Source: Pelagihabitans pacificus
GTDB lineage: Bacteria; Bacteroidota; Bacteroidia; Flavobacteriales; Flavobacteriaceae
Length of the DNA stretch: 64,000 nt
Assembly (NCBI RefSeq): GCF_009371985.2
Contig: NZ_VIKU02000001.1
Location: 310,001 to 374,000, forward strand
Direction of reading: 5' to 3'
This document shows positions 39,847-64,000 of the stretch, in pieces. Below the pieces are notes generated by a model that worked only from the letters and a program-made list of their open reading frames with translations, was not told the DNA's origin and did not search any database. How positions within the stretch are numbered: position 1 is the first letter of the stretch; the number at the start of each line of letters is the position of its first letter. Both the position numbers and the translations under genes were made by a program.

Positions 39847-40443
39847 ATGATCAGCAAAGCGTTGTCTTTTATCGAGGAGCAAACCGATTTATATCTTCAG
39901 GGCTTGCTTGGGGCTTCCACACAGAAGTACGCAGTCCTAGGGAACATTGCCAGAATCATAGACAGCGGGGAAACCAGCGAAACGGAAGACACATCCGGTG
40001 TAATCATTACACTGGTGAATATCGAGGAAGATCGGATTTCCAAAAATCCCGATGGCATCTATAGGCAGGTTGACAAAGTTATTCATACCAACCCCAAGAT
40101 TCTCGTGAACCTCTATATACTGTTCTCTGTAAATCTAAATGATTATACCGCCGCCCTCAGTAGAATTTCCAATGTGATACAGTGCTTCCAAAGCAACAAT
40201 TACTTTTCACAGGCCAGCTATCCTTCCTTGGACCCGGGCATTGAGAAATTGCACCTGGAACTCTACACGATGAATTTTGAACAGGTGAACCACCTCTGGA
40301 GTACCCTCGGCGGGAAATATTTGCCATCGGTCCTTTACAAAATGAGAATGGTGGTCATTGCCGATGAAGCCAACCAAATGGGTGGCGGACTAATAAGGGA
40401 AATACAGACGGAGAAGAGTGTCATTGCCAGCACGATAAATTGA
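39847..40443 (+). CDS. eCIS cap/tail-terminator protein (DUF4255, Pvc16-like)
   Basis: I start at ATG 39847 (MISKALSFIEEQTDLYL), the usual beginning of DUF4255 proteins, giving 198 aa; the frame is open to 39703 but that part would cross the dyad sites. 'GVIITLVNIEEDRISKNPDG', 'NLYILFSVNLNDYTAALSRISNVIQCFQSNNYF' and 'LWSTLGGKYLPSVLYKMRMVVI' are typical of the family. Pvc16/Afp16 caps the far end of the sheath and tube and stops their growth. It is the first gene of the particle cluster, 5 bases before the next gene. Confidence 0.88.
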   Translation: MISKALSFIEEQTDLYLQGLLGASTQKYAVLGNIARIIDSGETSETEDTSGVIITLVNIEEDRISKNPDGIYRQVDKVIHTNPKILVNLYILFSVNLNDYTAALSRISNVIQCFQSNNYFSQASYPSLDPGIEKLHLELYTMNFEQVNHLWSTLGGKYLPSVLYKMRMVVIADEANQMGGGLIREIQTEKSVIASTIN

Positions 40444-40448
40444 TACCT

Positions 40449-41690
40449 ATGCGATACACACCCCTGTTTACCATAGAAATAGAACATGATTATTTTTCGG
40501 TGTCCACACCGGAAGTCCTTCGCATTATACCTACGTCTGCCACACGGAGAACATTACGAGGTGCGGGCTTGATTTCGAAATTCTTTCAAAACAAATTATA
40601 TGTCCTCATCAAGCATCTAGATGATACCATGCCTTTTCTACAGTTGGACAATGATTTCACGCTTCAATTTTTTCTAGAGGTGATCGGACCTAATTTTTCC
40701 AACATTACCAACTATGCCCCCGAAGACCCGTTCAACATAAAGCTGTACTTCAGCAATGCCGTTTCCATTCTTGATGGTACTAACAAATCAGTCGAGAATG
40801 TGCTCTATCTACACGAAAAACTTCCCCAATTCAATGCCACGCAGGCCTACAAATACAACGATTTGGTTCGTAGCGGATCAGATACCGCCTACGAATGCCT
40901 ACAAAAGATAGATGCCAATACGGGAAATCTGAATAATGGGTCCCAATTTAGGCAACTGGAAAAAGTAAGCTATGTATCTCCGGCGACTACCTTGTCGTTT
41001 ACGGGACCCGAAAAAATAGTGGCCCTTACCACACCGGCTACGGGAGTAACCCTAAGCTACAACAAATACAATCCCGTTACGAAAGACTTCGATATCGAAG
41101 TGAAACAGACAACCATAGGACCCGAAGAGAATCCCACCGGGGCTATTATCAAAGAGGTCTTGCTCAGTTTTCGTACGGAGGAAAACCTACCCCTGGAGGA
41201 AGGAATCTATAAGGTAATCCTCAATACCACCCAGGAAATAGTCCTATATCTCAGACCGGAAAACGACTGGAAATCGTATTTGGGCCTTATCAACATTCAT
41301 AATGATGCCATGGCGACGGAAGACCAATACCGGTTTCTAAAAGAAGATGGCTCGTTCTTTACGGTTGCCCCGGCAAACACGGAAATCGAAACGCGCAACT
41401 ATAAAATCAGATTCGCCCCTGCCCAATACTTGTTAAAATATAAATGCAAAACCAACAAGGTAACCAATATCACCGACGACGACGGAAAAATCGTTTTCGA
41501 CAGTCTGGGGGGGAATATATTTCAAAGTCAATTACCTGTTCGAATGAACGAAAAGGCCATCGATACTATTTCGATAGCCTATGACGGGTCGGACACTTTC
41601 CAGAAAACAAAGGTCCCGGGCCATCGGAACCTCTCGATTCTGGAGGGTGATGACAAATACATCGTAAGCGAAACATTTTTGAATTTATAA
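40449..41690 (+). CDS. Unrecognised conserved-looking protein between cap and sheath genes of eCIS
   Basis: I start at ATG 40449 (MRYTPLFTIEIEHDYFS), five bases after the stop of the DUF4255 gene (413 aa). It is beta-rich, with no signal peptide or membrane segment. Notable stretches are 'RRTLRGAGLISKFFQNKLYVLI', 'LEVIGPNFSNITNYAP', 'EGIYKVILNTTQEIVLYLRPENDW', and a C-terminal beta segment 'DTISIAYDGSDTF'. I cannot assign a family. Its place next to the cap gene suggests a structural role at that end, for example joining cap and sheath. Confidence 0.8.
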   Translation: MRYTPLFTIEIEHDYFSVSTPEVLRIIPTSATRRTLRGAGLISKFFQNKLYVLIKHLDDTMPFLQLDNDFTLQFFLEVIGPNFSNITNYAPEDPFNIKLYFSNAVSILDGTNKSVENVLYLHEKLPQFNATQAYKYNDLVRSGSDTAYECLQKIDANTGNLNNGSQFRQLEKVSYVSPATTLSFTGPEKIVALTTPATGVTLSYNKYNPVTKDFDIEVKQTTIGPEENPTGAIIKEVLLSFRTEENLPLEEGIYKVILNTTQEIVLYLRPENDWKSYLGLINIHNDAMATEDQYRFLKEDGSFFTVAPANTEIETRNYKIRFAPAQYLLKYKCKTNKVTNITDDDGKIVFDSLGGNIFQSQLPVRMNEKAIDTISIAYDGSDTFQKTKVPGHRNLSILEGDDKYIVSETFLNL

Positions 41691-41711
41691 AAACAATTAA
41701 AATCACACATT

Positions 41712-43802
41712 ATGGCCACAGTTTACAAAACTCCGGGTGTTTATGTCGAGGAGATTCCAAAACTCCCGCCCTCCGTTGCCCAAGTGGAAACGGCAATTCC
41801 GGCCTTCGTAGGGTACACGGAAAAAGCAGAAAAAAGAGGGGAATCTCTCCACCTGAAACCTACCCGTATATCTTCATTACTCGAATTCAGGGAGTTCTAC
41901 GGTGGTGACCATCCGATTGACGACATAAGTGCAGTTGTTGACGAAACCAACAATTATGCGGTCGTCAGTGTAAGTATTGCCAATACGGAAAGGTACCTGC
42001 TATATGACAGTCTTCGGTTATTTTTTGATAACGGCGGTGGGGATTGCTACATAGTTTCGGTAGGGTTATTCGGAACGGCACCATCCTACGGGGACGAAAA
42101 TGCGGCACCACCTACCGGTCTCAGGGCTGGGGTGAAAGCGTTGGAAAAATATGATGAACCTACCATTATTCTATTCCCGGATGCCATCAATGTTGTTACC
42201 AACGGAAACGACGATGCCAACTTTTATAGTCTGCAACAAATGGCCTTGGAACAATGTGCCAAGCTTCAGGATAGGGTGGGACTCTTTGATCTCAAGGAAA
42301 ACATTACCGGAAACGATTTGGATACCGCCATCGAAAATTATAGAAATAATATTGGTATAAACAATCTAAAGTATGGTGCTGCCTACACTCCTTATGTGAT
42401 AGCGACCTATCCAAGGGATATCGATCTCGCTTCATTCAAGGATAATATCGATGATTCGTCAGGTGATATCGATCTGAGCCAATTGTCGTCGGAAAGTGAA
42501 CACTTAGATCTGATAAATAGTTATGAAGCAGCGGAAAGTGAGGCAACCCTTGTGGAGAATACAATCACCAGCATTAAACGAGCGAATACGACCGATGGTA
42601 ATTTTGATGATTCGGTGACGGTAGCGAACATGCCTTCAACCATCAAGGAAAAGTTCCTAGGATACAAAAATACCGTAGACGGTGCCGCTGATTCCGCCAA
42701 TGTATTGCCAGCCATCCAGGCATTGTTCGAATTTTGCCGAAACGCGATCATGAGTTTTCAAGATCTGTACAATGATCCAAACATAAGTGGTACCAATATT
42801 GCTCCTGACATCAATACGTATGCGCTATCGAGTAATATGTGGCGAGGTGCCATACGGGGCATCGTGGCAATTGAAAAAAACACTGATGTGTTCCCCTTAA
42901 ATGGGCTTACCGGAGTTACGGATGTTTATCCCTTATACCAAGATAGCGCAGGTTCTGCACCAAGTAGCGTTTGGGTAGATTCCGCCTTATCCGGCATTTC
43001 TGCAACTACTAAAGACTATGGTGATCCTACCGACACAACGGCGCATCCTGTCATGGCACGACAAATTGCGAATGATGTTTTAAAGGAATTTGAAAAATTA
43101 ATCGCGTATGCCGATGCTGTAAGGGGGGCTGCGAATAGATACAAGAAAGCGGCGCAGGATGCCCTATATGAAAGGCATCCCGTCATCAGTAATCTGGTAA
43201 AGCATATCACTAGAAGCATCAACACCTTACCCCCTAGCGGTGCTATAGCAGGTGTTTACGCAAAAGTGGATAATTCACGGGGTGTATGGAAAGCCCCTGC
43301 AAACGTAAGTTTGAATTCGGTGAGCGAACCTTCTATAGTAATCAGCCATGAAGAACAGGCGAATATCAATGTAGACGCCGTAGCGGGTAAATCTATCAAC
43401 GCTATCCGCACTTTCATCGGAAAAGGTCCCCTGGTCTGGGGAGCCAGAACGCTCGCAGGGAACGACAACGAGTGGCGTTACATCAGCGTCCGACGATTTT
43501 TCAATATGGTCGAGGAGAGCTGTAAAAAATCGACCGAGCCCTTCGTTTTTGAACCCAACGACGCCAATACATGGACCAAAGTACAGACCATGATCGAGAA
43601 CTTCCTGACCCTTCAATGGCGACAGGGAGCACTGCAGGGTGCCAAACCAGAGCATGCCTTCTACGTGGCGGTCGGTCTGGGCAAAACAATGTCGGCCGTG
43701 GATATTCTGGAAGGCAGAATGATCGTTGAAATTGGAATGGCGGTCGTACGGCCTGCAGAATTCATTATCCTACAATTCTCGCACAAGCTGGCGGAATCGT
43801 AA
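41712..43802 (+). CDS. eCIS contractile sheath protein (Pvc2/phage tail sheath-like)
   Basis: In this 696-aa protein, the N-terminal 'YKTPGVYVEEIPKLPPSVAQVETAIPAFVGYTEKA' and 'LRLFFDNGGGDCYIVSVG' are diagnostic of tail sheath subunits, as is the C-terminal domain (about 560-696: 'GPLVWGARTLAGNDNEWRYISVRRFFNMVEES', 'FLTLQWRQGALQGAKPEHAFYVAVG', 'VVRPAEFIILQF'). It polymerises around the tube and contracts to drive it through the target membrane. It is longer than classical sheaths because of an insert in the middle (about residues 220-480). Only one sheath gene is present; PVC-type loci have three. Confidence 0.95.
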   Translation: MATVYKTPGVYVEEIPKLPPSVAQVETAIPAFVGYTEKAEKRGESLHLKPTRISSLLEFREFYGGDHPIDDISAVVDETNNYAVVSVSIANTERYLLYDSLRLFFDNGGGDCYIVSVGLFGTAPSYGDENAAPPTGLRAGVKALEKYDEPTIILFPDAINVVTNGNDDANFYSLQQMALEQCAKLQDRVGLFDLKENITGNDLDTAIENYRNNIGINNLKYGAAYTPYVIATYPRDIDLASFKDNIDDSSGDIDLSQLSSESEHLDLINSYEAAESEATLVENTITSIKRANTTDGNFDDSVTVANMPSTIKEKFLGYKNTVDGAADSANVLPAIQALFEFCRNAIMSFQDLYNDPNISGTNIAPDINTYALSSNMWRGAIRGIVAIEKNTDVFPLNGLTGVTDVYPLYQDSAGSAPSSVWVDSALSGISATTKDYGDPTDTTAHPVMARQIANDVLKEFEKLIAYADAVRGAANRYKKAAQDALYERHPVISNLVKHITRSINTLPPSGAIAGVYAKVDNSRGVWKAPANVSLNSVSEPSIVISHEEQANINVDAVAGKSINAIRTFIGKGPLVWGARTLAGNDNEWRYISVRRFFNMVEESCKKSTEPFVFEPNDANTWTKVQTMIENFLTLQWRQGALQGAKPEHAFYVAVGLGKTMSAVDILEGRMIVEIGMAVVRPAEFIILQFSHKLAES

Positions 43803-43847
43803 TCGGGAAGTTTCAAACAAAAAAATAATCTATAAATAAACAGTATC

Positions 43848-44276
43848 ATGGAAACATATCCATTAACTAAATTTCATTTCAGGGTTGACTGGAGTGGCGC
43901 CAAAATTGGATTTACCGAAGTCACCGGGTTAGACTTTCAGGTGGAGCCCATAGAGTATCGCGAAGGCAGCAGTCCGGAATACCACAAAATCAAGATGCCC
44001 GGCATGCACAAGTTCAGCAACATCACATTGAAACGCGGCACTTATTCCGGCGATATCGATTTCTATAATTGGATGAAAACCATCAACCTCACCAATGTGG
44101 AACGCAGGGATATCACCATTAGTCTTTTGAATGAGGAACACGAGCCCGTCATGACTTGGGGCATCAAGAACGCATTTCCGATCAAGGTACAGGCGAGCGA
44201 CCTAAAGGCAGATGGCAATGAGATTGCAGTGGAGACATTGGAATTGGCCCATGAAGGCCTGAAGATCATCGAATAG
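43848..44276 (+). CDS. eCIS inner tube protein (Pvc1-like)
   Basis: The 142-aa protein has the Hcp-like tail-tube pattern: 'LTKFHFRVDWSGAKIGFTEVTGLDFQVEPIEYREGSSPEY', 'KMPGMHKFSNITLKRGTYSGDIDFYNWM', and a C-terminal strand 'IAVETLELAHEGLKII'. Hexamer rings of it stack to form the tube that carries cargo. It lies 45 bases after the sheath gene and is probably the main tube protein of the pair. Confidence 0.95.
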   Translation: METYPLTKFHFRVDWSGAKIGFTEVTGLDFQVEPIEYREGSSPEYHKIKMPGMHKFSNITLKRGTYSGDIDFYNWMKTINLTNVERRDITISLLNEEHEPVMTWGIKNAFPIKVQASDLKADGNEIAVETLELAHEGLKIIE

Positions 44277-44298
44277 ACATCTCACAGATATACCCATT

Positions 44299-44766
44299 GT
44301 GGCAAAGGATGATTTACATAAAGCAGGGGGGTATTATCCTCCCGTGGGCTTTCACTTTAGGGTCGAGTTCATCAATATCGGCAATGACAACGATGTACGT
44401 TTTCAAAGTGTCGGGGGACTCAATATGGAACTTGATGTGGAAAATATCAAGGAAGGCGGCCAAAACTTGTTCGAGCACAAACTCCCAGGCCGAAGTAAAT
44501 TCTCGGACCTTTCCCTAAAAAGAGGGTTACTGCTCGATTCAGAACTTATCAAGTGGGTGAAAAGTGCCTTGTACGATAGGGAGTACGAGCCTGCCGAAAT
44601 GAACATCAGCCTCCTGAATAGCGACCATGACCCCCTCATGACCTGGAAGGTCTTCAAAGCCTGGCCTCGAAAATGGAATGTCAGCGATCTCAACGCAAGT
44701 GAGAATTCAGTCATGGTCGAAACCCTCGAAATAGCCTACAATTATTTCACCGTTCAAAAAGGATAG
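44299..44766 (+). CDS. eCIS tube initiator or second tube protein (Pvc5-like)
   Basis: The 155-aa protein is homologous in pattern to the tube protein before it ('PPVGFHFRVEFINIGNDNDVRFQSVGGLNMELDVE', 'LPGRSKFSDLSLKRGLLL', 'SVMVETLEIAYNYFTVQ'). It starts with GTG at 44299. In PVC-like particles the second tube protein nucleates the tube on the baseplate hub. It has a longer N-terminus than its neighbour (KDDLHKAGGYYP). Confidence 0.92.
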   Translation: MAKDDLHKAGGYYPPVGFHFRVEFINIGNDNDVRFQSVGGLNMELDVENIKEGGQNLFEHKLPGRSKFSDLSLKRGLLLDSELIKWVKSALYDREYEPAEMNISLLNSDHDPLMTWKVFKAWPRKWNVSDLNASENSVMVETLEIAYNYFTVQKG

Positions 44767-44767
44767 G

Positions 44768-44953
44768 ATGTCTTTGAAAATTAACCATTTAAAAGTGAGT
44801 ATCACTGTCAATCAAGCCAAGTCCGAAGGAGGAGAAGGTAGTAGTACCCCTGTTTCAGAACAGGATGCTGGTAAAAAGGCCGATCCCGAGAAACTGGCAA
44901 AAGATGTCGTAGAGCAAGTTATGCGAATCATGGAGGATAAAAAAGAACGATAA
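44768..44953 (+). CDS. Small eCIS protein (DUF5908/Pvc6-like)
   Basis: The 61-aa protein starts 'MSLKINHLKVSITVNQA', the short beta start of DUF5908 proteins in contractile-system loci, then a low-complexity linker and a charged helix ('KLAKDVVEQVMRIMEDKKER'). It starts 2 bases after the tube gene and overlaps the LysM gene by one base (TAATG). Its exact role is unknown. Confidence 0.75.
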   Translation: MSLKINHLKVSITVNQAKSEGGEGSSTPVSEQDAGKKADPEKLAKDVVEQVMRIMEDKKER

Positions 44954-45645
44954 TGGCACTTGGAAAACTGGAAAAACTTAAAATAATCGCCTTTAAGAAT
45001 GCGGACTATTCCGATGCGCCCAGTGAACAGGAAACCTTTACGGCAATGCTCAACCCGGAGACTTATTCATTGGACTATAAGGTAGAGTATCAGGATGGTC
45101 AGGGACAGGGCACCAGTAGCTCGCAGCAACGCTTCTCGGTCAAAAAGCCAGAGGAATTTGCCTTTGAATTATTGATCGATAGTTCCGGGATCATCGATGG
45201 CAAGCCAAGGGAATCGATCGAGGACGATATCACCGAATTACGAGATCTTTTGCTCAAATACGAGGGGGATATCCATGAACCGAAACACTTCCAAGTACTC
45301 TGGGGAAGCTTGCTTTTCAAAGGGCGTTGTACCGGACTCAATATCAATTTCAAGCTCTTCAACCCCGACGGGAAGCCTATCAGGGCCCTATGCAAGGTTA
45401 CCTTTACCGGAAGCGTCGAAGACAACCTACGAACGGCGGAGGAACGCAGGGAATCGCCCGATATGACCCATTATCGATTGATAAAGTCAGGGGATACCCT
45501 GCCGATGATGTGTTACAAAATTTATGGAAGTTCCAGTTACTATTTACAAGTAGCACAAGTCAATAAACTCCCCAATTTTAGAAATCTCCCACCGGGAACC
45601 GAAATCTTTTTTCCTCCCATCACGAAAAACACCCCTGTAGCATGA
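44953..45645 (+). CDS. eCIS baseplate hub/LysM protein (Pvc7-like, gp53-like)
   Basis: In this 230-aa protein, the N-terminus 'LEKLKIIAFKN', 'FTAMLNPETYSLDYKVEYQD' and 'FELLIDSSGIID' match the contractile-system LysM protein family. The C-terminal LysM domain is at about 170-225 ('HYRLIKSGDTLPMMCYKIYGSSSYYLQVAQVNKL', 'PPGTEIFFPP'). It sits between tube, sheath and spike in PVC particles. It overlaps the next gene by 4 bases. Confidence 0.92.
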   Translation: MALGKLEKLKIIAFKNADYSDAPSEQETFTAMLNPETYSLDYKVEYQDGQGQGTSSSQQRFSVKKPEEFAFELLIDSSGIIDGKPRESIEDDITELRDLLLKYEGDIHEPKHFQVLWGSLLFKGRCTGLNINFKLFNPDGKPIRALCKVTFTGSVEDNLRTAEERRESPDMTHYRLIKSGDTLPMMCYKIYGSSSYYLQVAQVNKLPNFRNLPPGTEIFFPPITKNTPVA

Positions 45646-47387: not shown

Positions 47388-47392
47388 AAAAT

Positions 47393-47686
47393 ATGGGAGC
47401 ACCCGCAGCAAGAATAACCGATATGCATGTTTGTCCAATGGTGAACCCCGGTGGCGTACCCCATGTGGGCGGACCTATCTTACCTCCCGGGGCAGCTACG
47501 GTATTGATCGGGGGGATGCCGGCGGCACGTGTGGGAGATATGTGTACCTGTGTCGGCCCGCCAGATACGATTATCGCGGGATCATCGACCGTCATGATCG
47601 GTGGGATGCCTGCTGCCCGCATGGGGGATTCAACGGCCCATGGAGGAACCATCGTCGCAGGGGCCCCTACAGTTTTAATCGGATAA
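47393..47686 (+). CDS. PAAR-repeat spike tip protein (Pvc10-like)
   Basis: The 97-aa protein has three PAAR-type motifs (PAARITD, PAARVGD, PAARMGD) and the metal-binding His/Cys pattern ('MHVCPMV', 'MCTCVGPP', 'STAHGG'). It forms the pointed cone on the spike. There is no C-terminal toxin domain. It is co-transcribed between the spike and gp25 genes. Confidence 0.95.
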   Translation: MGAPAARITDMHVCPMVNPGGVPHVGGPILPPGAATVLIGGMPAARVGDMCTCVGPPDTIIAGSSTVMIGGMPAARMGDSTAHGGTIVAGAPTVLIG

Positions 47687-47690
47687 GGAA

Positions 47691-54882: not shown

Positions 54883-57800
54883 ATGGCACAATCTATTCAA
54901 CATGATCGGTATCCAAAATTTGTAGCAGATCAAGTGCTTACAGAGAAAAGCCTCAATCAAATGTTCAGCTATTTGGAAGACCAACAACGACTTACCAGGA
55001 CCACCCTGATCGGTATCGGTATCCTATGTGGTATGGAAGTAAGTGTAAACGACGATGGTACGGAGTTGACCATCTCCCATGGGGTGGGTGTCACCTCAAA
55101 AGGATATTTGGTACCGTTTCCCGAAACCACCTACACCTTTTACAATGATGAATTTTCAGCGGAACAGGAATTCTTTTATGAGCCCTTTTTGAATGCGGAT
55201 ACTACCCAAAAGTTTCCTTTGAACCTCTTGCACAACGACGGGGCGGCGGAAATCCAAAAACCACTTACATCAGATTTTTTGGAAGATAAAGTGGTGGTCG
55301 TTTTTGTGGAGCTGCTAAAGGTAGACAACAAAAACTGCGATCCCGATTCCTGTGATGATAAGGGATGCACCGTAGAAGTGACGCATAGACCGCTACTTGT
55401 GGCTCAGGAAGATATCGACAACCTCATCTTTGGAGGGGACGAAGATCCGTTCCTGCATGAACCTTCCTGTGTAGAATGGCCAGAGATCAAAATGCCCAAA
55501 TACAATGTGCCCGCCACCCTGCTATTGAGTTCCCCGGCCATCCTAAAAAACTTTCTCAATGTATTGACCAGCGATTTTATGCTGAATGTCGAAAACGTAC
55601 TTGGGGCCGCTTATGCCTCCTTGGGTTATTACATCAAGGATGAATACCCAAACAATCCGTTCAGCGGACTCAAAAACAGGTTTTCATTTTTGTTCAACGG
55701 CGGTATCAACGCGCAACAGTTGTTGCATGTGCAATATTACTTTGACTTCTTCTCAGATCTAATTATGGCTTACCAGGAACTTCGCAAAATGTGCAACGAC
55801 TGTCTGGCCCTTTGTTGTCCTAACGAAGATTTATTTCCGAGACACCTCATCTTGGGAAACGCGATCGCTCCACCGCTTGGTTTTAGACATCATTGGATTC
55901 AATCTCCTGCGTTTGCATGCGATTGCTGTTCCGAGGAACGAATAAAGTTTCTACTAAAGAAAATCGCCTTACTAATTGAAAAGCTCCGTAACCCTAGAGC
56001 GGTTATTGGCTCCGCCAACAAGCCCCTTGGCGTAAGGATAACCCCTAGCAGCTACGGGAGTATCCCCCTTTCGGAAAAGGCCATACCTTATTATTACGAC
56101 ATCTTTAATGGCCCGAACGAATTGTACGACCACTGGAACTTTAGCAAATCCAAGCTCGGGAAAGGAAAAAACAACCTGTCGTACGATGCCGATCAATATA
56201 CGAACGACCCCTATTTTAAAGACCCATTAAACTATGACCTCGAACCCTTTAATTTTCTCAGGGTCGAGGGGCATATTGGGATGAATTGGAAAAATGCATT
56301 GGCCGAGGTGAACAGCGTTCGATATCAAAAGCGTCTGCCAATGGATGTGGTTGCTTTGAACGGGGACATTTTTGCCCTTATACAAAGTCTCCTTACCAGC
56401 ACGAACAGTTTGGCCGATCTAATTAGCGGAAATAAGGATATTGCAGCTGACCTACGATGCTACTTTGCCGATATTGAATCGCAATACGATGCCCATGCCG
56501 CGGAATTGAGATGTACCATAATAAAGGTAATGGCATATTTTTACAATCTACCAAAGCTCGATGCCCAGGCCCCTCCCGTTGCTACGACCAATCTACCCCA
56601 ATCGACTTTGGTAAGAAAAGAGTTTCCAAATTATAGAACTTTTGCAAATACTTACGGAGCGGATTTCGATGCATTCTACGCACCACTAAAAAATCAGCCC
56701 TACATTACCCCACAAGCTTTCATGAGCCAAGCAGCGACTGTTGGTCTCGCGGCACAGGCCCAATTATTAAGCCCCATTTATTTGATGTACTATTTGGAAA
56801 AAATTTATGAAGCCCTCCCTGATGGGTTGGTACAGCTCCAAATAAATACCCTAACACAGCGGCTAGAAGATGCTTCGGGGGTAGCCGCGGTGATGTTACT
56901 GGCTTTAGACAATATTCCGGATTTTGAATTGCCTGCCATGTGGGAAGAAAGCTTGGATGCCATTATCCGGATATGCAAGGCCGACGTCTTTAACGTTCTT
57001 TTCCGAAATTTTCTCATCAACTATGTGCTATTTATCGCAAACCAGACGTTCGCGTTATATGCGTTTAAAAATCCCGGAGTACAACACAAAGCCGGAACCA
57101 CCACCGGAGGTACCCTGATACTTGTATATACCGATAAACCTGAAATAAGACAAGTAGCGCTAACCAACGAGAGGCGAGTAGTCTCGGCTATTGATACCGA
57201 TGGCCCGGAACGCTTTACACCCAATGGAAACTTTTCCACCACGCGCAATTCAGCCGAAGGAGATTTTGGATTTAGTATGAACAACCTTAAAGCTAGAAAA
57301 AGTGTTGAAAAAGCGGGACGCAACCCAATTCTAGACTACCGAAAAAGAGGGGAATCCGTTAAGGCGGAAGGCCTCGATGATATTTTTGAGATTGCCGACG
57401 CAGCTGGCAAGGATTCGTTTACCGATAAGGAGTTGGCCGCCTTGGTGAATGAATTTCCCGAAGGCACCGTCATTGCGGATTTCTTTGTACCCAATATGTG
57501 CAAATCGTCCTGCATGGCCATGAATTTCATCGTCATGGGGGACAAAGAGCCAGGCCCGGGGGAAACAAATGTTCGCCTGGACATCAAACTAAGGGAATAT
57601 TGTGAGGATGACGACACCGATTACGAAATTAAGTTGGCCCCCGAGGGAGGCGAATTAAAATTGGATGGCACCGTTGTACCAACCGATGAAAAATTCAATC
57701 CGACCAATTTCAAACCCGATGGTAATGACGCATCGAGAGAAGTGGTCATCACCTATACCGTAAATGCCGATGTAAAGAATATCACGGTGACGGTCTTCAA

Positions 57801-58611
57801 AAAGCCAGAAATAAGCATTGCAATCGATACAAAGGATGATGTGAACAAGGTGGTCACCTTTAAAAATGATACCAAATTTGCGGACAGTTATCAGTGGAAT
57901 TTTGGGAACGGACAGTCTTCTACCGACAGAGATCCCGGACCCATCAGTTTTGGGAATTTACAAACAGCCACAGTAACCTTAAAAGCTGGGAATGGTCCTT
58001 GCCAGAACGAATCACAACCCTTGCCGGTTTCTTTTGAAGACACTCCGGACGAAGAACGCAGCTGTACCCCAATTGGTCCTATCGCGGATAAATTTAAAGT
58101 GCTGGACGAAGTGAGCTCGGACAAGTTCAAGGATGCTGTCGATGGATATGCGTTGCTGGTGGAAGCATTCATCAATAAGTTTGCGGAAATTAAAGACCTC
58201 CTGCAGAAAGAACAGTTTGAAAAATTGGTTGCAGACCTTTCGATTTCCGTCATCCAGAAAATGCTGCGGATTCTAAATGCCATGGTGCAGACCAAGCCGG
58301 AACTAAGACGGTTTGCCCTCATGCTTTATGAAGTACTATTAATGCTTGTTCAATTCTATGCATGTTGCCAGAATCAAGATATAGACAAGGCCAAGGTAAA
58401 AACCGGGAATACCTTAAAAATTATGGTCGGCCATCTCAGTTCGTGGAGGGGGCAGATTGATTTCAAGGATGATGAAAAGGAAATTCTTCAGTCGATGCTG
58501 GAGGCGACCCTTAAAGAATTTCAAAAAACGCAGACCGAGACCCCTCATAAAACAAAGTACATCGATTTCTTGAAGGCGTTGGTCAAAATCCTTACCGAAT
58601 TGGCGGTTTAA
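54883..58611 (+). CDS. 1242-aa eCIS protein in the Pvc13/tail-fibre position, with PKD-like domain
   Basis: Residues about 15-105 ('VADQVLTEKSLNQMFSYLEDQQRLTRTTLIGIGILCGMEVSV', 'TISHGVGVTSKGYLVPFP') look like an N-terminal domain used by particle-attached proteins that dock on baseplates. Three Cys-rich patches lie at about 150-165, 302-315 and 344-353 ('ACDCCSEER'). Residues about 975-1045 have a PKD-type beta domain ('SYQWNFGNGQSS', 'TVTLKAGNGPC'). The C-terminal 180 residues are helical. It sits where Pvc13 (host-binding fibre) lies in PVC, but it lacks the collagen-like or adenovirus-fibre repeats of that protein. Fibre, cage or adaptor roles are all possible. Confidence 0.85.
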   Translation: MAQSIQHDRYPKFVADQVLTEKSLNQMFSYLEDQQRLTRTTLIGIGILCGMEVSVNDDGTELTISHGVGVTSKGYLVPFPETTYTFYNDEFSAEQEFFYEPFLNADTTQKFPLNLLHNDGAAEIQKPLTSDFLEDKVVVVFVELLKVDNKNCDPDSCDDKGCTVEVTHRPLLVAQEDIDNLIFGGDEDPFLHEPSCVEWPEIKMPKYNVPATLLLSSPAILKNFLNVLTSDFMLNVENVLGAAYASLGYYIKDEYPNNPFSGLKNRFSFLFNGGINAQQLLHVQYYFDFFSDLIMAYQELRKMCNDCLALCCPNEDLFPRHLILGNAIAPPLGFRHHWIQSPAFACDCCSEERIKFLLKKIALLIEKLRNPRAVIGSANKPLGVRITPSSYGSIPLSEKAIPYYYDIFNGPNELYDHWNFSKSKLGKGKNNLSYDADQYTNDPYFKDPLNYDLEPFNFLRVEGHIGMNWKNALAEVNSVRYQKRLPMDVVALNGDIFALIQSLLTSTNSLADLISGNKDIAADLRCYFADIESQYDAHAAELRCTIIKVMAYFYNLPKLDAQAPPVATTNLPQSTLVRKEFPNYRTFANTYGADFDAFYAPLKNQPYITPQAFMSQAATVGLAAQAQLLSPIYLMYYLEKIYEALPDGLVQLQINTLTQRLEDASGVAAVMLLALDNIPDFELPAMWEESLDAIIRICKADVFNVLFRNFLINYVLFIANQTFALYAFKNPGVQHKAGTTTGGTLILVYTDKPEIRQVALTNERRVVSAIDTDGPERFTPNGNFSTTRNSAEGDFGFSMNNLKARKSVEKAGRNPILDYRKRGESVKAEGLDDIFEIADAAGKDSFTDKELAALVNEFPEGTVIADFFVPNMCKSSCMAMNFIVMGDKEPGPGETNVRLDIKLREYCEDDDTDYEIKLAPEGGELKLDGTVVPTDEKFNPTNFKPDGNDASREVVITYTVNADVKNITVTVFKKPEISIAIDTKDDVNKVVTFKNDTKFADSYQWNFGNGQSSTDRDPGPISFGNLQTATVTLKAGNGPCQNESQPLPVSFEDTPDEERSCTPIGPIADKFKVLDEVSSDKFKDAVDGYALLVEAFINKFAEIKDLLQKEQFEKLVADLSISVIQKMLRILNAMVQTKPELRRFALMLYEVLLMLVQFYACCQNQDIDKAKVKTGNTLKIMVGHLSSWRGQIDFKDDEKEILQSMLEATLKEFQKTQTETPHKTKYIDFLKALVKILTELAV

Positions 58612-58614
58612 AAT

Positions 58615-59994
58615 ATGACGGTAGCACCACAAAATACCATCGATAACGCAGAGCTTCATTTTAAGTTGAGCTCCCTACCACTCCATATGGGAAACGGAGA
58701 TGCTTTCGTTTCCTGGGCCAAAACAAATGTCCTGAAAGCCATTGACCATCATGCGGAAGACCTGACGGCCACCGACGCGATGGTCCAGATTCCCACTTTG
58801 GAGTTAGATATTGTCATAGACCAGGAATCCGATTTTTTCTCGGACCCATCGAACATACAGGCTATTGTTTGGGACAAGGTATACAATGGTTTAAAAAAGG
58901 CCATTCGGCAAAGCGATACGACCGAGACAGCTGTTTCCGAATACCAGGCTACAATTGTACTTGATTTTATTAGAACAGGACAGTTGTCGACCTACTATAC
59001 CGATGAACATTGGAATAATCTTGTGAATGTTTTATATGATACCATTCCCGAAAACAAGCGGTTAAGGGAGCAACTTTTTAAAACCGTTCGTAACGAGGGG
59101 GCATTTAACCGCTTGTCAAACTTGAGAAGCCTCAGGGGTTTAGGCATACTGCTCGATCGAATACTGGGCAAAGCGGCTTCGAATAAGTTGAAAATTGCTC
59201 TACGGTTCATTCAGGACCACCCAGATTATTTTAAACCAATTCATCTAGAGGAATTCTATTACCGGGTTTTCCTCACACTAGGCACTAATGGAAACAATTT
59301 ACAACCCCTACTATTTCGACTTCTAAGAGGCCTACAAGTTTCCAAAGGGCTCACACGGAAAAAGCTTAGGTTTCCCTCAGAAGTGGAGCAAGAAATGAAA
59401 GTGGCCTTTTATGAATCGGTAACCGAGTTGAAAAAAACAAAAGCCCCTGTTCGCGAAAAGGGGTTTGGGGAAGAACCGTCACCGCTTATTGAAAAAGGTG
59501 CCCATGTAGGGCAGGCAGGTCTTGTATTGCTCGCACCCTTTCTCCCCAAATTCCTCAGAAATTTGGGACATATTGGTACTAACGGGCAGCTGAGAAGAAG
59601 AAGTAGCATACCCATGCTTTTACATTACCTCGCCACCGGGGAAACCAGCGCCCTTGAATGGAAATTAACCTTACCCAAGGTGCTGGCGGGAATGGCCCCG
59701 GGAACCCATTGCGCTACAAATATCAGGCCCTCAAAAAAACGGGATGCCCAGATCAATGAGTTGTTAAAGTCAGTCATCGGCCATTGGGAGGCATTGAAAA
59801 ATACCAGTCCGGCCGGACTCCAGGCTACTTTCTTGATGAGGCAAGGGACATTAAAGACCAAAAATGGCTTTGACTACCTCTACATCACCGAACGAACGGA
59901 AGATATTTTACTCAACTATATCCCTTGGAACTATACGACAATAAAGTACGATTGGATGCCAAACATCCTCTTTGTGGAATGGAATAAAAGTTAA
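58615..59994 (+). CDS. eCIS tape measure protein (Pvc14-like)
   Basis: The 459-aa protein has the N-terminus of contractile-system tape measures ('NAELHFKLSSLPLHMGNGDAFVSWAKTNVLKAI', 'LELDIVI'). Its conserved C-terminus, about residues 298-457, has 'QAGLVLLAPFLPKFLRNLG', 'MLLHYLATGETSALEWKLTLPKVLAGM', 'GHWEALKNTSPAGLQATFLMRQG' and 'YIPWNYTTIKYDWMPNILFVEW'. It sets sheath and tube length during assembly. The part between the conserved ends is short, about 185 residues. It lies 3 bases after the 1242-aa gene and 9 bases before the TTG of the DUF4157 gene. Confidence 0.88.
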   Translation: MTVAPQNTIDNAELHFKLSSLPLHMGNGDAFVSWAKTNVLKAIDHHAEDLTATDAMVQIPTLELDIVIDQESDFFSDPSNIQAIVWDKVYNGLKKAIRQSDTTETAVSEYQATIVLDFIRTGQLSTYYTDEHWNNLVNVLYDTIPENKRLREQLFKTVRNEGAFNRLSNLRSLRGLGILLDRILGKAASNKLKIALRFIQDHPDYFKPIHLEEFYYRVFLTLGTNGNNLQPLLFRLLRGLQVSKGLTRKKLRFPSEVEQEMKVAFYESVTELKKTKAPVREKGFGEEPSPLIEKGAHVGQAGLVLLAPFLPKFLRNLGHIGTNGQLRRRSSIPMLLHYLATGETSALEWKLTLPKVLAGMAPGTHCATNIRPSKKRDAQINELLKSVIGHWEALKNTSPAGLQATFLMRQGTLKTKNGFDYLYITERTEDILLNYIPWNYTTIKYDWMPNILFVEWNKS

Positions 59995-60003
59995 TAACGC
60001 CCC

Positions 60004-63000
60004 TTGTTTTCAACAGCGGAAAAAACGGCAAAACCCGCTCTGAGCGTTCAACGCAAAACGGAGCAAGCTTTTTTTGGACCCCAAAAAGAGCCGGTGTCCC
60101 CTACCCCTGAACCAACCTTTTTTCAACCTGCCATACAACCTAAATTAAAGGTGAACCGGCCCGACGACCACTTCGAAAAAGAAGCGGACTTGGTCGCCGA
60201 ACGTGTCGTCAATATGCCTGAAACACAAATCGATCTGGCCCCGACCGCTGTCCCCGAGGTACAGCGAATGGAAGAATCCAAGGAAGAGGAGGAAGAAACC
60301 CTTCAAACCGCTTCCCTCTCGGTGCAGCGAATGATGGATGAGGAGGAAGAATCACCAGCCATCGAGACAAAACAGGCCGATACTGTTCAACGAAATTCAA
60401 ATACTACCTTGCAGACTTCTTCCGAAGAAGAGGAAGAAAGCCTTCAAACCAAATCCAAACAACGGTCACCTGCGATGTACCACTCGGATGTGATACAGCT
60501 GAGTGGCCGTGGTCCCCCGGGTGGCGCCGCGCAATTCCAAAGTCAATTGCACAGTTCAACCTCCAGCGGTAGGCCCTTGGGCAAGTCCGTTGGAAACTTC
60601 ATGTCGACCCGTTTCGGGGCAGATTTCAGTAGTGTGCGGATACATACCGACACGAGCGCTCAGCAGATGAGTAAGCAAGTAAACGCGCATGCCTTTACCT
60701 ACGGAAACCATATCTACTTCAACAGCGGAAAATACGATCCCGATTCAAAAGCGGGACAGACACTTCTTGCGCATGAATTAACACATACCATACAGCAAGG
60801 GGCAAGCCCTGTTATGGCCAAATTACAGCGAAAACACATCTTCACCGCCGTACAGCGCAAATCCATTCTTCAAAGACAGGTAGCACCTCAGCTAACGGCT
60901 GCTGTTGAGCTGGCCCAGGCAGAGCAGGGAAAGGTCATCGCCAACAAAGAAGGGTCAGATGGCTATCGCTATGGTTGGGAACGTCTCATCGAATATTTTG
61001 AGACCACCTTCGGAAAGGATAAAATTGTTAGCCGACCCACCGGGGAAAAAGGGGTCGTCTACAGACCACACATTAAAAAGAAAGCCATCATTCCGGGGCA
61101 GGTGCCCAATCAACCGGATCCCAACGTCAAAGAAAATCGCGATGCCATGCCCAGTTGGTGTGGAATCTTTGCCTTCTGGGCCTTGAACAAGGCCGGTATA
61201 CCCATGCCTAAATGGAAATTAGGGGAAGAGTTCATTCCAAAAGAATCGGTATATCCTTCAGGGTACACCCCGAAACCCGGAGATTTGGCATTCAAACAAA
61301 AACGTTCCCACTACGGTCTAGTAGTGGGTATGGAAGGTCCTAATAGGGTAAAAAGCGTAAACGGCAACACGGCCGGAGATGATAACCTGGGAGGGGAGGT
61401 CCAGGTACAGACCCATGATATCAGTAACTGGCAGGCATTCTATAATCCCCTGGTGGCCAAAACCGGAAAACTCCGGGATGCAAGGCATGGCGATGAAGAG
61501 ACCGAACCAAAAACATTCAAGGAACTACGGAAACTAAAATACAACGTTAGTCGAAAAGCAGAAAGTAAAACCGAGGAGGAAGGATTGCAGGCAAAATCGG
61601 AAGGAGCCGAGAAAGAGGAGGAAGAGGAAATGATACAGGCCAAATCGGAACATCCTGAAAAAGAACAGGAGGAAGAAACGATACAGCGTTCCGAAACGGG
61701 TAGTTCTGGCGGATTTGCCTCTATGGGGGTTGACTATGAAACCGATGATGGAGCTGCCGATATTCAGACCAAACCCATTGCTCCCGCTGCTACCCTGGTA
61801 CGAAACAAGTCCCCGGGAACCATGATCCAAGGTGGTTGGTTGGGCGATGCATGGAATGCCGTTTCCGGCCTAGCGTCTGATGTAGCGGATTTGATCGAGG
61901 AAGGGCTCGAAGCGGCCAAGGATTGGTTGTTGGATAGGGTCCGGGATTTTGTGGTCGAAATTCCTGGGTACACGCTTTTGAGTTACATTCTTGGCTATGA
62001 CCCCATTACCGGCAGGAATGTGAATAAAACGCCCCTCACCCTATTGGATGCCGTACTCGACATTATTCCTATCGGGGGCACGATGGTAAAATGGGTATTG
62101 GACTATTTTGAGGCGATCAATCCCGTTGCCAATTGGCTATTTGAGTCCGTTGCAAGATTCACCAACCTCATTGCCAATGTCGAGACCCGGTTCGAGAATT
62201 TCTGGAACCGGTTGAGTATCGACGATGTGGGCAATCCAGAGCGGGTGATGAACGATGTGGCCGACCTGTTCCGATCAATTGTCACCGACATCGTTGACTT
62301 CGTCGCGGATGTTGGTGGTGATTTCCTCTCCATGGTCACAGACATTGCGATCAGTACCATGGCCACCATTGTCAAGGAGTTTTTCCCGGATGCCTGGGAT
62401 TTGTTGACCGTCTTGTTAGGGGAAGACCCCGTAACCAAGGAACCGGTAGATCGTAACGGAACCAATATTCTAAATGCCGGTTTAAAGGCACTTGGGGATC
62501 GCGGCACCCAGATCAAAGGGCAAATGGAAGAGAACGGCATCTTTGCCGAATGTGCCGCTTGGATCGATCGAGGCATTGATCTCGCGCTTTCCTTGATTTC
62601 CGATGTGGGCAACATCTTTGACGTACTTTGGGATGCCTTGACATTTGAGTCGCTCTTCCATCCTGTACAGACCTTCAATGAAATTGCACAGGCCTTCTTG
62701 ACTCCTATCGCGCGCATCACCTCGTTTATCACGGATGCCATGATACAGTTGCTGGCCATTCTAAGGGATGCCCTGCTGAGCAGGCTAAGTGCCTTTGCAA
62801 GGGAACAACGGGGTTACTTCCTCATCACCGTATTGATTGGTATGGATCCGTTTACTAGACAAGATGTTCCGCGTAACACAGAAAACATCATACACGGTTT
62901 CTTTAGTTTGATGGAAGGTGGGGAAGCCCAGTTCCAGCAGCTAAAAGAAAGTGGGAAAATCGATCAGATGACTCAAAAAATCGAACGGGCCGTCAACCAG

Positions 63001-64000
63001 CTCAATTTCACTTTGGAGTATATACTGGGGCTCTTTACCAGTTTATGGGAATCGTTGGATTGGAACGACTTCCTGAATCCGTTGGAAGTGTTTAGAAGAA
63101 TCGTTGCCACCTTCGGCGATCCGGTCATCCGATTGGTGCGGTTCATAGTGACCGTTGTTCAAATAGCGGTCGAAATCTTGTTGATCGCAATGAACTTCCC
63201 CTTCGAGACGGTGAACAATATCATTCAACGTTCTCTGGAGGCCTTCGGTAATATCAAGCGAGATCCTATCGGCTTCCTCAAAAATATCCTGAGGGGTATC
63301 AAGCAGGGCTTCACCCAGTTTTTCGATAATATCCTCACCCACCTCATGAGCGGCCTGGCCACTTGGTTGTTTGGTTCTCTGGGTGAATTGGGCATACAAA
63401 TGCCACCAGACCTCAGCTTCCGAAGTATCCTGAACCTCATTATGCAGATCCTGGGTATTAGTGTGGATCGAATTATGGAACGGGTCTGGTTAAAACTAAC
63501 CGAACAGATCGGGGCCGAAAAAGTAGCCAAAATCAGGGGTGCCGTTGATAAATTAACAGGTATCTGGACGTTCATCAAGGATGTCATCGATCGGGGTCCG
63601 ATTGCCATTTGGGAGTACGTACAGGAGAAGTTGAGCGAGCTGTGGAACATGGTGCTCGATGCCGCCAAAAATTGGATTATGACCCGAATCATCGCCAGTG
63701 TCACTACCAAATTGCTGAGTATGTTGGATCCAACGGGCATTATGGCCGTCATCAATAGTGTCATCGCTATCTATAGGGCTATTCAATCCTTTATCGAACA
63801 GCTCAGAGCCATGTTGGAAATCTTGAATTCGTTCGTCAACGGTATTGCGGAGATTGCTGCTGGTAACGTGAGTGCCGCGGCCAATTTCTTGGAAGGGGCC
63901 ATGGCACGTGGCATTCCTGTAATGATTGGTTTCCTGGCCAACCAAGTCGGTCTGGGCGGTATCGGCAGAAGACTTGCGGAAATCATCGGAAATATCCGCG
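60004..64000 (+). CDS. Giant eCIS-associated DUF4157 protein with CHAP/NlpC-like hydrolase domain, 3' truncated
   Basis: The frame opens after the TAA at 59995-59997; TTG 60004 is the best start (MFSTAEKTAKPALSVQ). No stop follows up to 64000, so at least 1332 codons are present. Residues 50-70 hold the DUF4157 start (RPDDHFEKEADLVAERVV). The rest of that domain (about 192-265) ends LAHELTHTIQQ, with HELTH at 257-261, a possible metal-binding HExxH. Between them is an acidic insert with repeated VQR and LQT motifs. Residues about 300-470 look like a CHAP/NlpC amidase: Cys386 in 'SWCGIFAFWAL', His436 in 'SHYGLVVG', and NGN at 453-455. A second acidic repeat (about 518-565) and long amphipathic helical repeats follow. 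It is probably exported cargo or an effector of the particle; a toxin C-terminus may lie beyond the edge. Confidence 0.85.
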   Translation, partial: MFSTAEKTAKPALSVQRKTEQAFFGPQKEPVSPTPEPTFFQPAIQPKLKVNRPDDHFEKEADLVAERVVNMPETQIDLAPTAVPEVQRMEESKEEEEETLQTASLSVQRMMDEEEESPAIETKQADTVQRNSNTTLQTSSEEEEESLQTKSKQRSPAMYHSDVIQLSGRGPPGGAAQFQSQLHSSTSSGRPLGKSVGNFMSTRFGADFSSVRIHTDTSAQQMSKQVNAHAFTYGNHIYFNSGKYDPDSKAGQTLLAHELTHTIQQGASPVMAKLQRKHIFTAVQRKSILQRQVAPQLTAAVELAQAEQGKVIANKEGSDGYRYGWERLIEYFETTFGKDKIVSRPTGEKGVVYRPHIKKKAIIPGQVPNQPDPNVKENRDAMPSWCGIFAFWALNKAGIPMPKWKLGEEFIPKESVYPSGYTPKPGDLAFKQKRSHYGLVVGMEGPNRVKSVNGNTAGDDNLGGEVQVQTHDISNWQAFYNPLVAKTGKLRDARHGDEETEPKTFKELRKLKYNVSRKAESKTEEEGLQAKSEGAEKEEEEEMIQAKSEHPEKEQEEETIQRSETGSSGGFASMGVDYETDDGAADIQTKPIAPAATLVRNKSPGTMIQGGWLGDAWNAVSGLASDVADLIEEGLEAAKDWLLDRVRDFVVEIPGYTLLSYILGYDPITGRNVNKTPLTLLDAVLDIIPIGGTMVKWVLDYFEAINPVANWLFESVARFTNLIANVETRFENFWNRLSIDDVGNPERVMNDVADLFRSIVTDIVDFVADVGGDFLSMVTDIAISTMATIVKEFFPDAWDLLTVLLGEDPVTKEPVDRNGTNILNAGLKALGDRGTQIKGQMEENGIFAECAAWIDRGIDLALSLISDVGNIFDVLWDALTFESLFHPVQTFNEIAQAFLTPIARITSFITDAMIQLLAILRDALLSRLSAFAREQRGYFLITVLIGMDPFTRQDVPRNTENIIHGFFSLMEGGEAQFQQLKESGKIDQMTQKIERAVNQLNFTLEYILGLFTSLWESLDWNDFLNPLEVFRRIVATFGDPVIRLVRFIVTVVQIAVEILLIAMNFPFETVNNIIQRSLEAFGNIKRDPIGFLKNILRGIKQGFTQFFDNILTHLMSGLATWLFGSLGELGIQMPPDLSFRSILNLIMQILGISVDRIMERVWLKLTEQIGAEKVAKIRGAVDKLTGIWTFIKDVIDRGPIAIWEYVQEKLSELWNMVLDAAKNWIMTRIIASVTTKLLSMLDPTGIMAVINSVIAIYRAIQSFIEQLRAMLEILNSFVNGIAEIAAGNVSAAANFLEGAMARGIPVMIGFLANQVGLGGIGRRLAEIIGNIR

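What the first reader, a model, noticed from the sequence alone, without database searches (positions are those of the whole stretch)
39847..64000. A nearly gapless extracellular contractile injection system locus, cut by the right edge
Fifteen plus-strand genes in a row encode cap, sheath, two tubes, DUF5908, LysM, VgrG, PAAR, gp25, J-like, Pvc12-like, fibre-position protein, tape measure and a DUF4157 protein, mostly with 1- to 8-base overlaps or gaps of a few bases. The families are known from PVC, Afp and Bacteroidota particles. There is one sheath gene, the cap gene comes first, and there is no T6SS membrane complex, so this is a free particle and not a type VI system.
Basis: partly seen in the sequence, partly recalled or inferred. 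Interest (0 to 1): 0.85.

Follow-up and report, generated by a model that had tools for sequence, protein, structure and literature searches.

The report
Bacterial syringe with swappable toxin cargo
This bacterium carries the genes for a phage-tail-like injection particle of a known kind, and its giant cargo protein looks like an exchangeable DNA- or RNA-cutting toxin paired with its own antidote gene, which suggests that the particle is aimed at other bacteria.

Summary
Fifteen plus-strand genes (39847-64000) encode an AlgoCIS-type contractile injection particle, from cap to tape measure and a DUF4157 cargo. VipB, TssK and IcmF of type VI systems are absent from the genome. The window cuts the operon: beyond it lie the rest of a 1750-residue cargo, a small gene, a second DUF4157 protein and the AAA ATPase. 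A LuxR-type regulator sits upstream.

The particle is ordinary; the cargo is the interesting part. Its first ~1386 residues are 72% identical to two Aquimarina cargos, but its last ~360 are not. That tail matches (41%) a Pedobacter cargo on a different carrier. It belongs to a PF13930-like nuclease family (weak in our protein alone). The small gene belongs to a family that lies directly behind such a toxin in all 8 named loci where it was found (7 independent). A relative's protein folds like SMI1/KNR4 (SUKH) proteins. So this is most likely an antibacterial polymorphic toxin with cognate immunity, carried by an eCIS. Against: 13 of 24 related toxins lack this immunity gene. Nothing was tested at the bench.

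The parts
38958..39653 (+). LuxR/GerE-type regulator, 231 aa, 193 bases before the cap gene; probable eCIS regulator
   Evidence: PF00196 E 1.8e-16; homologues in the fetched eCIS stretches of G148 (50%) and G080 (40%), there behind the AAA gene, and a weak one (32%) before the cap of G096: 3 of 12 relatives; GerE lies next to 25.8% of eCIS loci in PMC8213781 (passage)
39847..40443 (+). cap / tube terminator (Pvc16, Alg16A position)
   Evidence: Pvc16_N E 3.7e-32; start set by 7 relatives
40440..41690 (+). cap adaptor (Alg16B type); ATG start probably at 40449
   Evidence: alone no PDB hit; profile A6 of it and four syntenic relatives hits cap adaptor 7adz_1A E 2.6e-63
41712..43802 (+). contractile sheath
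   Evidence: Alg2 7adz_2A E 8.7e-141; PF17482 E 1.5e-13
43848..44276 (+). inner tube protein 1
   Evidence: Phage_T4_gp19 E 1.7e-48
44299..44766 (+). inner tube protein 2
   Evidence: Phage_T4_gp19 E 1.2e-43
44768..44953 (+). DUF5908 protein, 61 aa
   Evidence: PF19265 E 1.1e-8
44953..45645 (+). CIS_tube protein with weak LysM-like end
   Evidence: PF19266 E 7.7e-52; only one in the genome
45642..47387 (+). hub/spike (VgrG-like)
   Evidence: Phage_base_V E 3.3e-19, Phage_GPD E 3.8e-5
47393..47686 (+). PAAR tip
   Evidence: PF05488 E 2.5e-28
47691..48140 (+). gp25-like baseplate wedge
   Evidence: PF04965 E 8.3e-26
48142..51888 (+). baseplate J-like protein (Alg11 type)
   Evidence: 7aeb_G E 5.2e-134
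51881..54871 (+). baseplate protein (Alg12/Pvc12 type)
   Evidence: All3315 7b5h E 1.4e-131, Alg12 7aeb_A E 1.2e-103
54883..58611 (+). tail fibre (Alg19 type) with PKD-like part and helical end
   Evidence: All3314 7b5h_AA E 1.9e-45, Alg19 9wt0_a E 5.3e-45
58615..59994 (+). tape measure protein
   Evidence: CIS_TMP E 7.1e-68
60004..64000 (+). cargo, in-window part (residues 1-1332 of 1750): DUF4157 (about 60574-60804), CHAP-like cysteine peptidase domain (about 61141-61377), long helical part. Beyond the window (extrapolated coordinates, G000:C1): swappable toxin module 64168-65256, immunity gene candidate 65266-65952 (+), second DUF4157 protein 66087-67232 (+), AAA ATPase 67356-68717 (+)
   Evidence: eCIS_core E 2.9e-31; TIGR02594 E 4e-4, below cut-off; Cys386 and His436 kept in 6 of 6 cargos aligned; module; immunity; second DUF4157 E 8.1e-23, 71-73% in two Aquimarina loci; AAA E 1.6e-28

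Best explanation
The locus makes an AlgoCIS-type extracellular contractile injection particle whose main cargo is an antibacterial polymorphic toxin. Inferred sequence of events: a LuxR-type regulator switches the operon on; sheath and tube assemble on the baseplate to a length set by the tape measure; the AAA ATPase helps to load the DUF4157 cargo into the tube lumen; particles are freed by lysis, bind a target by the Alg19-type fibre and fire. The cargo is modular: a conserved carrier (DUF4157, CHAP-like cysteine peptidase, about 790 residues of hydrophobic helical sequence) and an exchangeable tail of about 360 residues with a PF13930-like nuclease core around His1563. The next gene encodes a SUKH-like immunity protein that spares the producer and its kin. 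Shown by sequence: gene content, module swap, linkage of toxin and immunity gene, predicted fold of a relative's immunity protein. Inferred: nuclease activity, immunity, bacterial target, loading, release.
For: Particle genes. Module swap: own residues 3-1385 are 72% identical to Aquimarina Aq78 (L081) and A. megaterium (L082), own tail only 22-27% over 219-239 columns; the two Aquimarina cargos are 83-100% identical to each other per 100 residues up to 1400, then 19-32%. Own tail is 41% identical over 364 columns to Pedobacter caeni (L145), whose carrier is only 32-33% identical in two pieces; the tree pairs their cores 100/100. Immunity: own P0002 and the gene after the Pedobacter toxin are related, 26% over 179 columns, E 3e-20. 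In 80 named loci a profile of five immunity proteins hits 8 of 1096 ORFs at E <= 1, and all 8 start -20 to +12 bases from the end of one of 20 toxin-profile ORFs; 7 are independent of the profile. In 395 genomes of the phylum a profile of seven finds 6 places in 4 genomes, that is 5 genes: 4 directly behind such a toxin, the fifth about 400 bases behind a toxin fragment in the same array. PF13930 matches 9 of 9 family members at E <= 1, best 7.1e-10. The model of the L145 immunity protein (pLDDT 83.7) matches SMI1/KNR4 protein 3d5p, E 3.8e-5, probability 1.00. Of ten other small genes behind cargos scanned, one is SUKH-1 (L110) and one Tdi1-type T6SS immunity (L139), both above cut-off.
Against: The nuclease match of our own protein is weak (E 0.015, below cut-off) and the toxin model is poor (pLDDT 50.6). 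Of 24 labelled toxins in the tree, 13 have no gene of this immunity family behind them, among them Aquimarina Aq78 with nearly the same carrier as A. megaterium; of the 7 genomes of 395 found by toxin sequence, only our own and G160 have it. Sequence profiles do not link the immunity family to SUKH: no Pfam SUKH hit in 6 members at E <= 5, hhalign probability 1.9%. Only one of 323 fold matches has E <= 0.001, with TM-score 0.42 by query length, and the model is of a relative (26% identical), not of our protein. The core Glu, invariant in 9 of 9 in A1, is not invariant in A5. AlgoCIS particles did not kill E. coli, V. cholerae or Echinicola pacifica (PMC8894135).
Confidence: 0.77

Rival explanations
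1. The particle is an eCIS aimed at eukaryotes (grazers, algae or animals); the nuclease acts in eukaryotic cells and the small gene only protects the producer from leaking cargo during assembly.
For: Four eCIS were known to act between bacteria and invertebrate hosts and some eCIS toxins kill yeast (PMC8213781, start of abstract and passages). 13 of 24 related toxins lack this immunity gene. A nuclease would harm any cell.
Against: The immunity gene sits beside such a toxin in 12 distinct genomes and changes together with the tail; AlgoCIS fibres bind the bacterium E. pacifica (PMC13314943); two neighbours in the same slot hit immunity families. Self-protection from leakage cannot be excluded by sequence.
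Confidence: 0.15
2. The apparatus is membrane-anchored (like T6SS-iv or the thylakoid CIS of Anabaena) or acts inside the producer as a lysis or cell-death device, not a released particle.
For: The best PDB hits of the Alg12-like protein and the fibre are those of the anchored Anabaena CIS; a 2-TM SLATT gene follows the ATPase; the fibre has one hydrophobic helix near its end.
Against: No VipB, TssK or IcmF. No homologue of the SLATT gene at E 1e-4 in the fetched stretches of 12 relatives or in the six named loci listed. The fibre helix carries a lysine in two Aquimarina homologues and scores lower there (1.53-1.59). Alg19 itself is a tail fibre of a particle purified free.
Confidence: 0.07
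3. The tail is a degraded or non-toxic structural end (lumen filler), and the next gene is a loading chaperone rather than an immunity protein.
For: Own PF13930 score is below cut-off; the residue before the conserved His differs (LH in ours and in L145, GH or AH in the others of A1); adaptors and chaperones are known for T6SS effectors, and DUF4157 was proposed to act like one (PMC11297309).
Against: His1563, Asn1587 and Glu1595 are invariant in 9 of 9 in A1; the gene changes together with the tail while the carrier, which a loading chaperone would serve, stays the same; the fold is SUKH-like, a superfamily known as immunity to nucleic-acid-degrading toxins (recalled; only a title seen in the reference list of PMC7073777).
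Confidence: 0.1

Closest known systems
AlgoCIS of Algoriphagus machipongonensis (PMC8894135, PMC13314943; passages seen)
   Same: one sheath, cap plus cap adaptor, Alg11, Alg12, Alg19 fibre, two DUF4157 cargo genes; a cargo with two HExxH motifs (Cgo1) resembles our 381-residue protein in that feature
   Different: our main cargo is 1750 residues with a CHAP-like domain and a nuclease-like tail, followed by an immunity gene candidate; no immunity gene is mentioned in the passages seen for Cgo1 or Cgo2
Thylakoid-anchored CIS of Anabaena (PMC8894136; passages seen)
   Same: near-equal sequence similarity of sheath, Cis11, Cis12 and Cis19
   Different: its membrane-spanning Cis13 was not searched for, but all fifteen of our genes have other assignments; different cargo
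eCIS-associated toxins (EATs) and the EAT5-immunity pair (PMC8213781; passages seen)
   Same: DUF4157 at the N-terminus, very long linker, toxin at the C-terminus, operon end; a few have immunity genes
   Different: the tested pair is a RES-like NADase with an upstream antitoxin; ours is a PF13930-like tail with a downstream SUKH-like gene, and the pair is seen on different carriers
Sle1-type effectors of actinobacterial CIS (PMC13277306; passages seen)
   Same: reconfigurable C-terminal effector domain; one homologue has a downstream gene that relieves toxicity
   Different: tape-measure-related effector in Actinobacteria, DUF4157 on a separate protein; the toxin and immunity families were not compared here
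TANFOR-BaCT polymorphic toxins of Bacteroidetes (PMC7073777; passages seen)
   Same: large carrier, exchangeable C-terminal DNase, diverse immunity genes directly downstream
   Different: TANFOR carrier linked to the type IX secretion system; BaCT is a PD-(D/E)xK enzyme

Membership tests
AlgoCIS-type eCIS | sheath, Alg11- and Alg12-type baseplate proteins | tested here: met
   E 8.7e-141, 5.2e-134 and 1.2e-103 to AlgoCIS chains; the Anabaena CIS is about as close, for the Alg12-like protein closer
AlgoCIS-type eCIS | cap adaptor Alg16B | tested here: met
   profile of five syntenic proteins hits 7adz_1A E 2.6e-63; our sequence alone hits nothing
AlgoCIS-type eCIS | Alg19 tail fibre | tested here: met
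   9wt0_a E 5.3e-45
AlgoCIS-type eCIS | DUF4157 cargo and AAA ATPase in the operon | tested here: met
AlgoCIS-type eCIS | spike cage formed by Alg11 extension | not tested
   not modelled
AlgoCIS-type eCIS | released as free particle, cargo in lumen | not testable with these tools
   needs electron microscopy and mass spectrometry
Type VI secretion system (types i-iii) | TssC/VipB sheath, TssK, TssM/IcmF | tested here: not met
   0 matches in the whole genome; the same searches ring in the control E. coli
Membrane-anchored CIS (T6SS-iv, tCIS) | membrane anchor in fibre or baseplate | tested here: inconclusive
   hydropathy only: no clear helix except one weak segment in the fibre
Polymorphic toxin system | conserved carrier with exchangeable C-terminal domain | tested here: met
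Polymorphic toxin system | C-terminal domain of a toxin family | tested here: inconclusive
   PF13930 in 9 of 9 at E <= 1, best 7.1e-10, but ours E 0.015 below cut-off
Polymorphic toxin system | immunity gene directly behind the toxin | tested here: met
   gap of 9 bases in ours; 8 of 8 family members found in 80 named loci; but 13 of 24 toxins lack it
Polymorphic toxin system | toxicity and neutralisation | not testable with these tools
   bench test
SUKH (SMI1/KNR4) superfamily | fold | tested here: met
   for relative L145 only: 3d5p_A E 3.8e-5, the one match with E <= 0.001; 16 of the first 21 rows are named SMI1/KNR4 or Knr4, the others YobK (2), FBXO3 complexes (2) and 2icg
SUKH (SMI1/KNR4) superfamily | recognised by SUKH sequence profiles | tested here: not met
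   no Pfam SUKH hit in 6 members; hhalign 1.9%; so 'SUKH-like fold', not filed under a Pfam SUKH family

The most novel reading that the evidence does not exclude
AlgoCIS-type particles of Bacteroidota are, at least in the lineages that carry this cassette, a phage-tail-delivered polymorphic toxin system for war between related bacteria: one conserved giant carrier, with nuclease tails and SUKH-like immunity genes exchanged as a unit across families (Flavobacteriaceae and Sphingobacteriaceae), so that a strain's cassette decides whom its particles kill and whose particles it survives.
Probability: 0.5. Interest if true: 0.65.

Novelty: new member of a known kind. Interest (0 to 1): 0.5.

Why it matters
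The natural target of AlgoCIS-class particles is open: AlgoCIS binds a bacterium but killed none of the three bacteria tested, and most antibacterial eCIS toxins were reported to lack immunity genes, which their discoverers called a mystery (PMC8213781). A linked, co-exchanged immunity family gives a direct genetic test of target (kin bacteria with and without the cassette) and a marker for finding other antibacterial eCIS. As an eCIS locus the find itself is ordinary.

Tried and rejected
Rejected: classical type VI system (VipB, TssK and IcmF absent). Left out of the system: the SLATT gene and the MBL/trypsin/FHIPEP genes behind the ATPase, of which no homologue at E 1e-4 appears in the fetched stretches of 12 relatives or the six named loci listed. 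One hit of P0002, G661, is a GNAT acetyltransferase away from any eCIS gene in its stretch and was left out of the immunity profile.

Led nowhere: PDB searches by sequence for the immunity protein, the toxin alignment and the cap adaptor alone; fold of the toxin tail (pLDDT 50.6), so no fold search was made with it; self-comparison of the helical part found no repeat; a strict pre-toxin motif was found in only 7 of 102 cargos, so no general motif is claimed; hhalign of the immunity family with SUKH sequences gave 1.9%. A first hhalign run was made in a wrong (global) mode and repeated.

Rows dropped before counts: in the tree, from the named loci L110 (fragment at the edge), L151 (no next gene) and L150 (516 residues, no eCIS_core); from the unnamed ones G371 (near copy of G351), the 99-residue orphan of G160 and the weak G129 hit; G039 is the same genome as L109. 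G105 was left without a label. 'None' means no gene of this immunity family; L106 and L123b have another small gene there. Ten small genes behind cargos were scanned: nine of the 22 listed, plus L106, whose cargo has no eCIS_core hit.
Full report
What is there. The window is bases 310001-374000 of contig 1 of a 4.56-Mb genome. Fifteen + strand genes run from 39847 to the edge. Families and E-values are in the parts table. PDB comparison names the proteins that Pfam could not: the J-like protein is Alg11-like, the 996-residue one Alg12-like, the 1242-residue one a tail fibre like Alg19, and the 416-residue one, by a profile of five syntenic proteins, the cap adaptor. The sheath is closest to Alg2.

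Synteny. Stretches of 12 relatives of the same family were fetched; four of them (G105, G011, G063, G019) cover only the later part. Where covered, the order of recognised genes is the same, with these departures: no fibre hit in G026, G080 and G077 (9 of 12 have one), extra genes behind the sheath in G080 and G077, and the ATPase before the cargos in G011. An ATPase homologue is seen in 10 of 12, not in the stretches of G105 and G063. In a sample of 149 genomes of the family, 18, our own included, have a match to some part of the cargo.

Free particle or not. VipB, TssK and IcmF are absent from the genome, while all three searches ring in E. coli. This excludes a classical type VI system, but not anchoring of another kind: of the four structural proteins with PDB hits by single sequence, two (Alg12-like and fibre) fit the thylakoid-anchored CIS of Anabaena best, and that apparatus is anchored by its fibre and baseplate. 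A Kyte-Doolittle scan with a threshold of 1.6 finds no membrane helix in the structural proteins except one segment at the end of the fibre (1.88), which in two Aquimarina homologues carries a lysine and scores 1.53-1.59; the cap ORF also scores 1.8, but at residues 29-57, mostly before its true start at residue 49. I read the fibre segment as a helix of a bundle. A released particle is the likelier reading.

The cargo. The last gene in the window continues to 65256 (extrapolated) and encodes 1750 residues: a low-complexity start, DUF4157 with HELTH, a CHAP-like cysteine peptidase domain (TIGR02594 E 4e-4, below cut-off; Cys386 and His436 conserved in 6 of 6 aligned cargos), a long hydrophobic helical part, and a tail. 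The tail contains an H...GPG...NLTP...N...E core; PF13930 (DNA/RNA non-specific endonuclease) matches it in 9 of 9 aligned relatives at E <= 1, best 7.1e-10, ours 0.015. So the nuclease call rests on the family, not on our protein alone. A model of the Pedobacter tail was too poor to use (pLDDT 50.6).

Module swap. Own residues 3-1385 are 72% identical to both Aquimarina cargos; own tail is 22-27% identical to theirs. Those two cargos are 83-100% identical to each other in every block of 100 residues up to 1400 and 19-32% after that. The nearest tail, 41% identical over 364 columns, belongs to Pedobacter caeni, of another family, on a carrier that matches ours only in two pieces at 32-33%. A tree of 25 tail cores (148 columns) pairs the two with 100/100 support. 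The tail is therefore exchanged as a module near residue 1389.

Immunity. Nine bases after the cargo comes a 228-residue gene with no Pfam match. Searched by itself in 299 genomes of the family, it found, besides itself, G604 and a GNAT protein (G661, dropped); the G604 hit turned out to lie 6 bases behind a cargo with a tail of the same family. A profile of five such proteins (own, G039, two of G160, G604) hits 8 of 1096 ORFs in 80 named ATPase loci at E <= 1; all 8 start -20 to +12 bases from the end of one of the 20 ORFs that match the toxin profile. A search of 395 genomes of the phylum with a profile of seven found 4 genomes and 5 genes: our own; G317 and G387 (the latter with the contig length of L143), each directly behind a toxin; and two in G160, one directly behind a toxin, one about 400 bases behind a 99-residue toxin fragment. 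Together the pair is seen in 12 distinct genomes. The model of the Pedobacter relative (pLDDT 83.7) matches the SMI1/KNR4 protein 3d5p with E 3.8e-5 and probability 1.00 (TM-score 0.67 by target, 0.42 by query length), the only match with E <= 0.001; 16 of the first 21 rows are SMI1/KNR4 or Knr4 structures. Sequence profiles alone do not show this.

Wider slot. Of 41 cargos of 1000 residues or more with a next gene in the 80 loci, 19 are followed within 60 bases by a small gene: 8 of this family and 11 others; for eCIS_core ORFs of any size it is 28 of 94. The same count for the ATPase is 10 of 76 and for the tape measure 6 of 53. Of ten such small genes scanned, one is SUKH-1 and one T6SS Tdi1-type above cut-off; one is a CHAP protein, one TPR, one ankyrin, one DUF4241, four have no match.

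Against. Of 24 labelled tails in the tree, 13 have no gene of this family behind them, and the label changes at least 5 times (12 of 500 shuffles as low). Of 7 genomes of 395 found by toxin sequence, only our own and G160 have it. Aquimarina Aq78 has almost the same carrier as A. megaterium, a tail of the same broad family and no immunity gene. Either such tails are harmless to the producer, or protection comes otherwise; PMC8213781 discusses the same puzzle.

Mechanism. Shown by others for AlgoCIS: DUF4157 proteins fill the tube and are lost on firing, and Alg19 fibres bind a bacterium (PMC8894135, PMC13314943; passages). The Pvc15 ATPase helps to load effectors in PVC (PMC11495950, start of abstract in a search listing only). 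By inference the same steps apply here, with a nuclease tail that must reach the cytoplasm; the CHAP-like domain and the hydrophobic helices could help it through wall and inner membrane, which is conjecture.

Novelty. eCIS loci, DUF4157 carriers with long linkers, antibacterial eCIS toxins and single immunity pairs are in print (PMC8213781, PMC11297309, PMC13277306; passages). I did not find this toxin-immunity pair or tail exchange between Bacteroidota eCIS carriers described, in five searches of an open-access library and the passages seen; most subscription papers and all preprints are not covered. Hence a new member of a known kind, with one feature, co-exchange of tail and immunity gene, that makes the target question testable.

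Noticed in passing
G000:C1 behind the eCIS, L004:13652-16923 and L011:905-6345 (about 69652-78345 in extended window coordinates): An MBL-fold gene (LmuA model E 1e-112), a trypsin-like gene and two genes with the cytoplasmic domain of FlhA (FHIPEP), one with many TPRs, overlap each other in a row. MBL-trypsin pairs are known effectors of Hachiman, Avs, Lamassu and DRT (PMC12799240, passages; the word FlhA does not occur there); an FlhA-like partner may be a new sensor.
   Followed up: partly
G000:C16:223534-225033 (L002:724-2223): A second, orphan sheath gene (499 aa) near a GH108 lysozyme-like gene and a GH18 gene, with no second CIS_tube protein in the genome.
   Followed up: partly
68795-69361 in extended window coordinates (L004:12795-13361): A 2-TM SLATT_4 protein directly behind the eCIS ATPase (NF033632 E 3e-38); no homologue seen beside the eCIS of the relatives compared.
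   Followed up: partly
L073 (G160), reversed 7870-9365: An orphan toxin-tail fragment of 99 aa followed by an immunity homologue, behind an intact pair: looks like a displaced cassette.
   Followed up: partly
L143:8589-9815 and L167:7599-8825 (probably one genome): The immunity gene is a double-length protein with two copies of the domain.
   Followed up: no
66087-67232 in extended window coordinates (L004:10087-11232): Second DUF4157 protein with HELKH and HEQDH motifs, kept at 71-73% in Aquimarina just before the ATPase; AlgoCIS Cgo1 also has two HExxH motifs.
   Followed up: no
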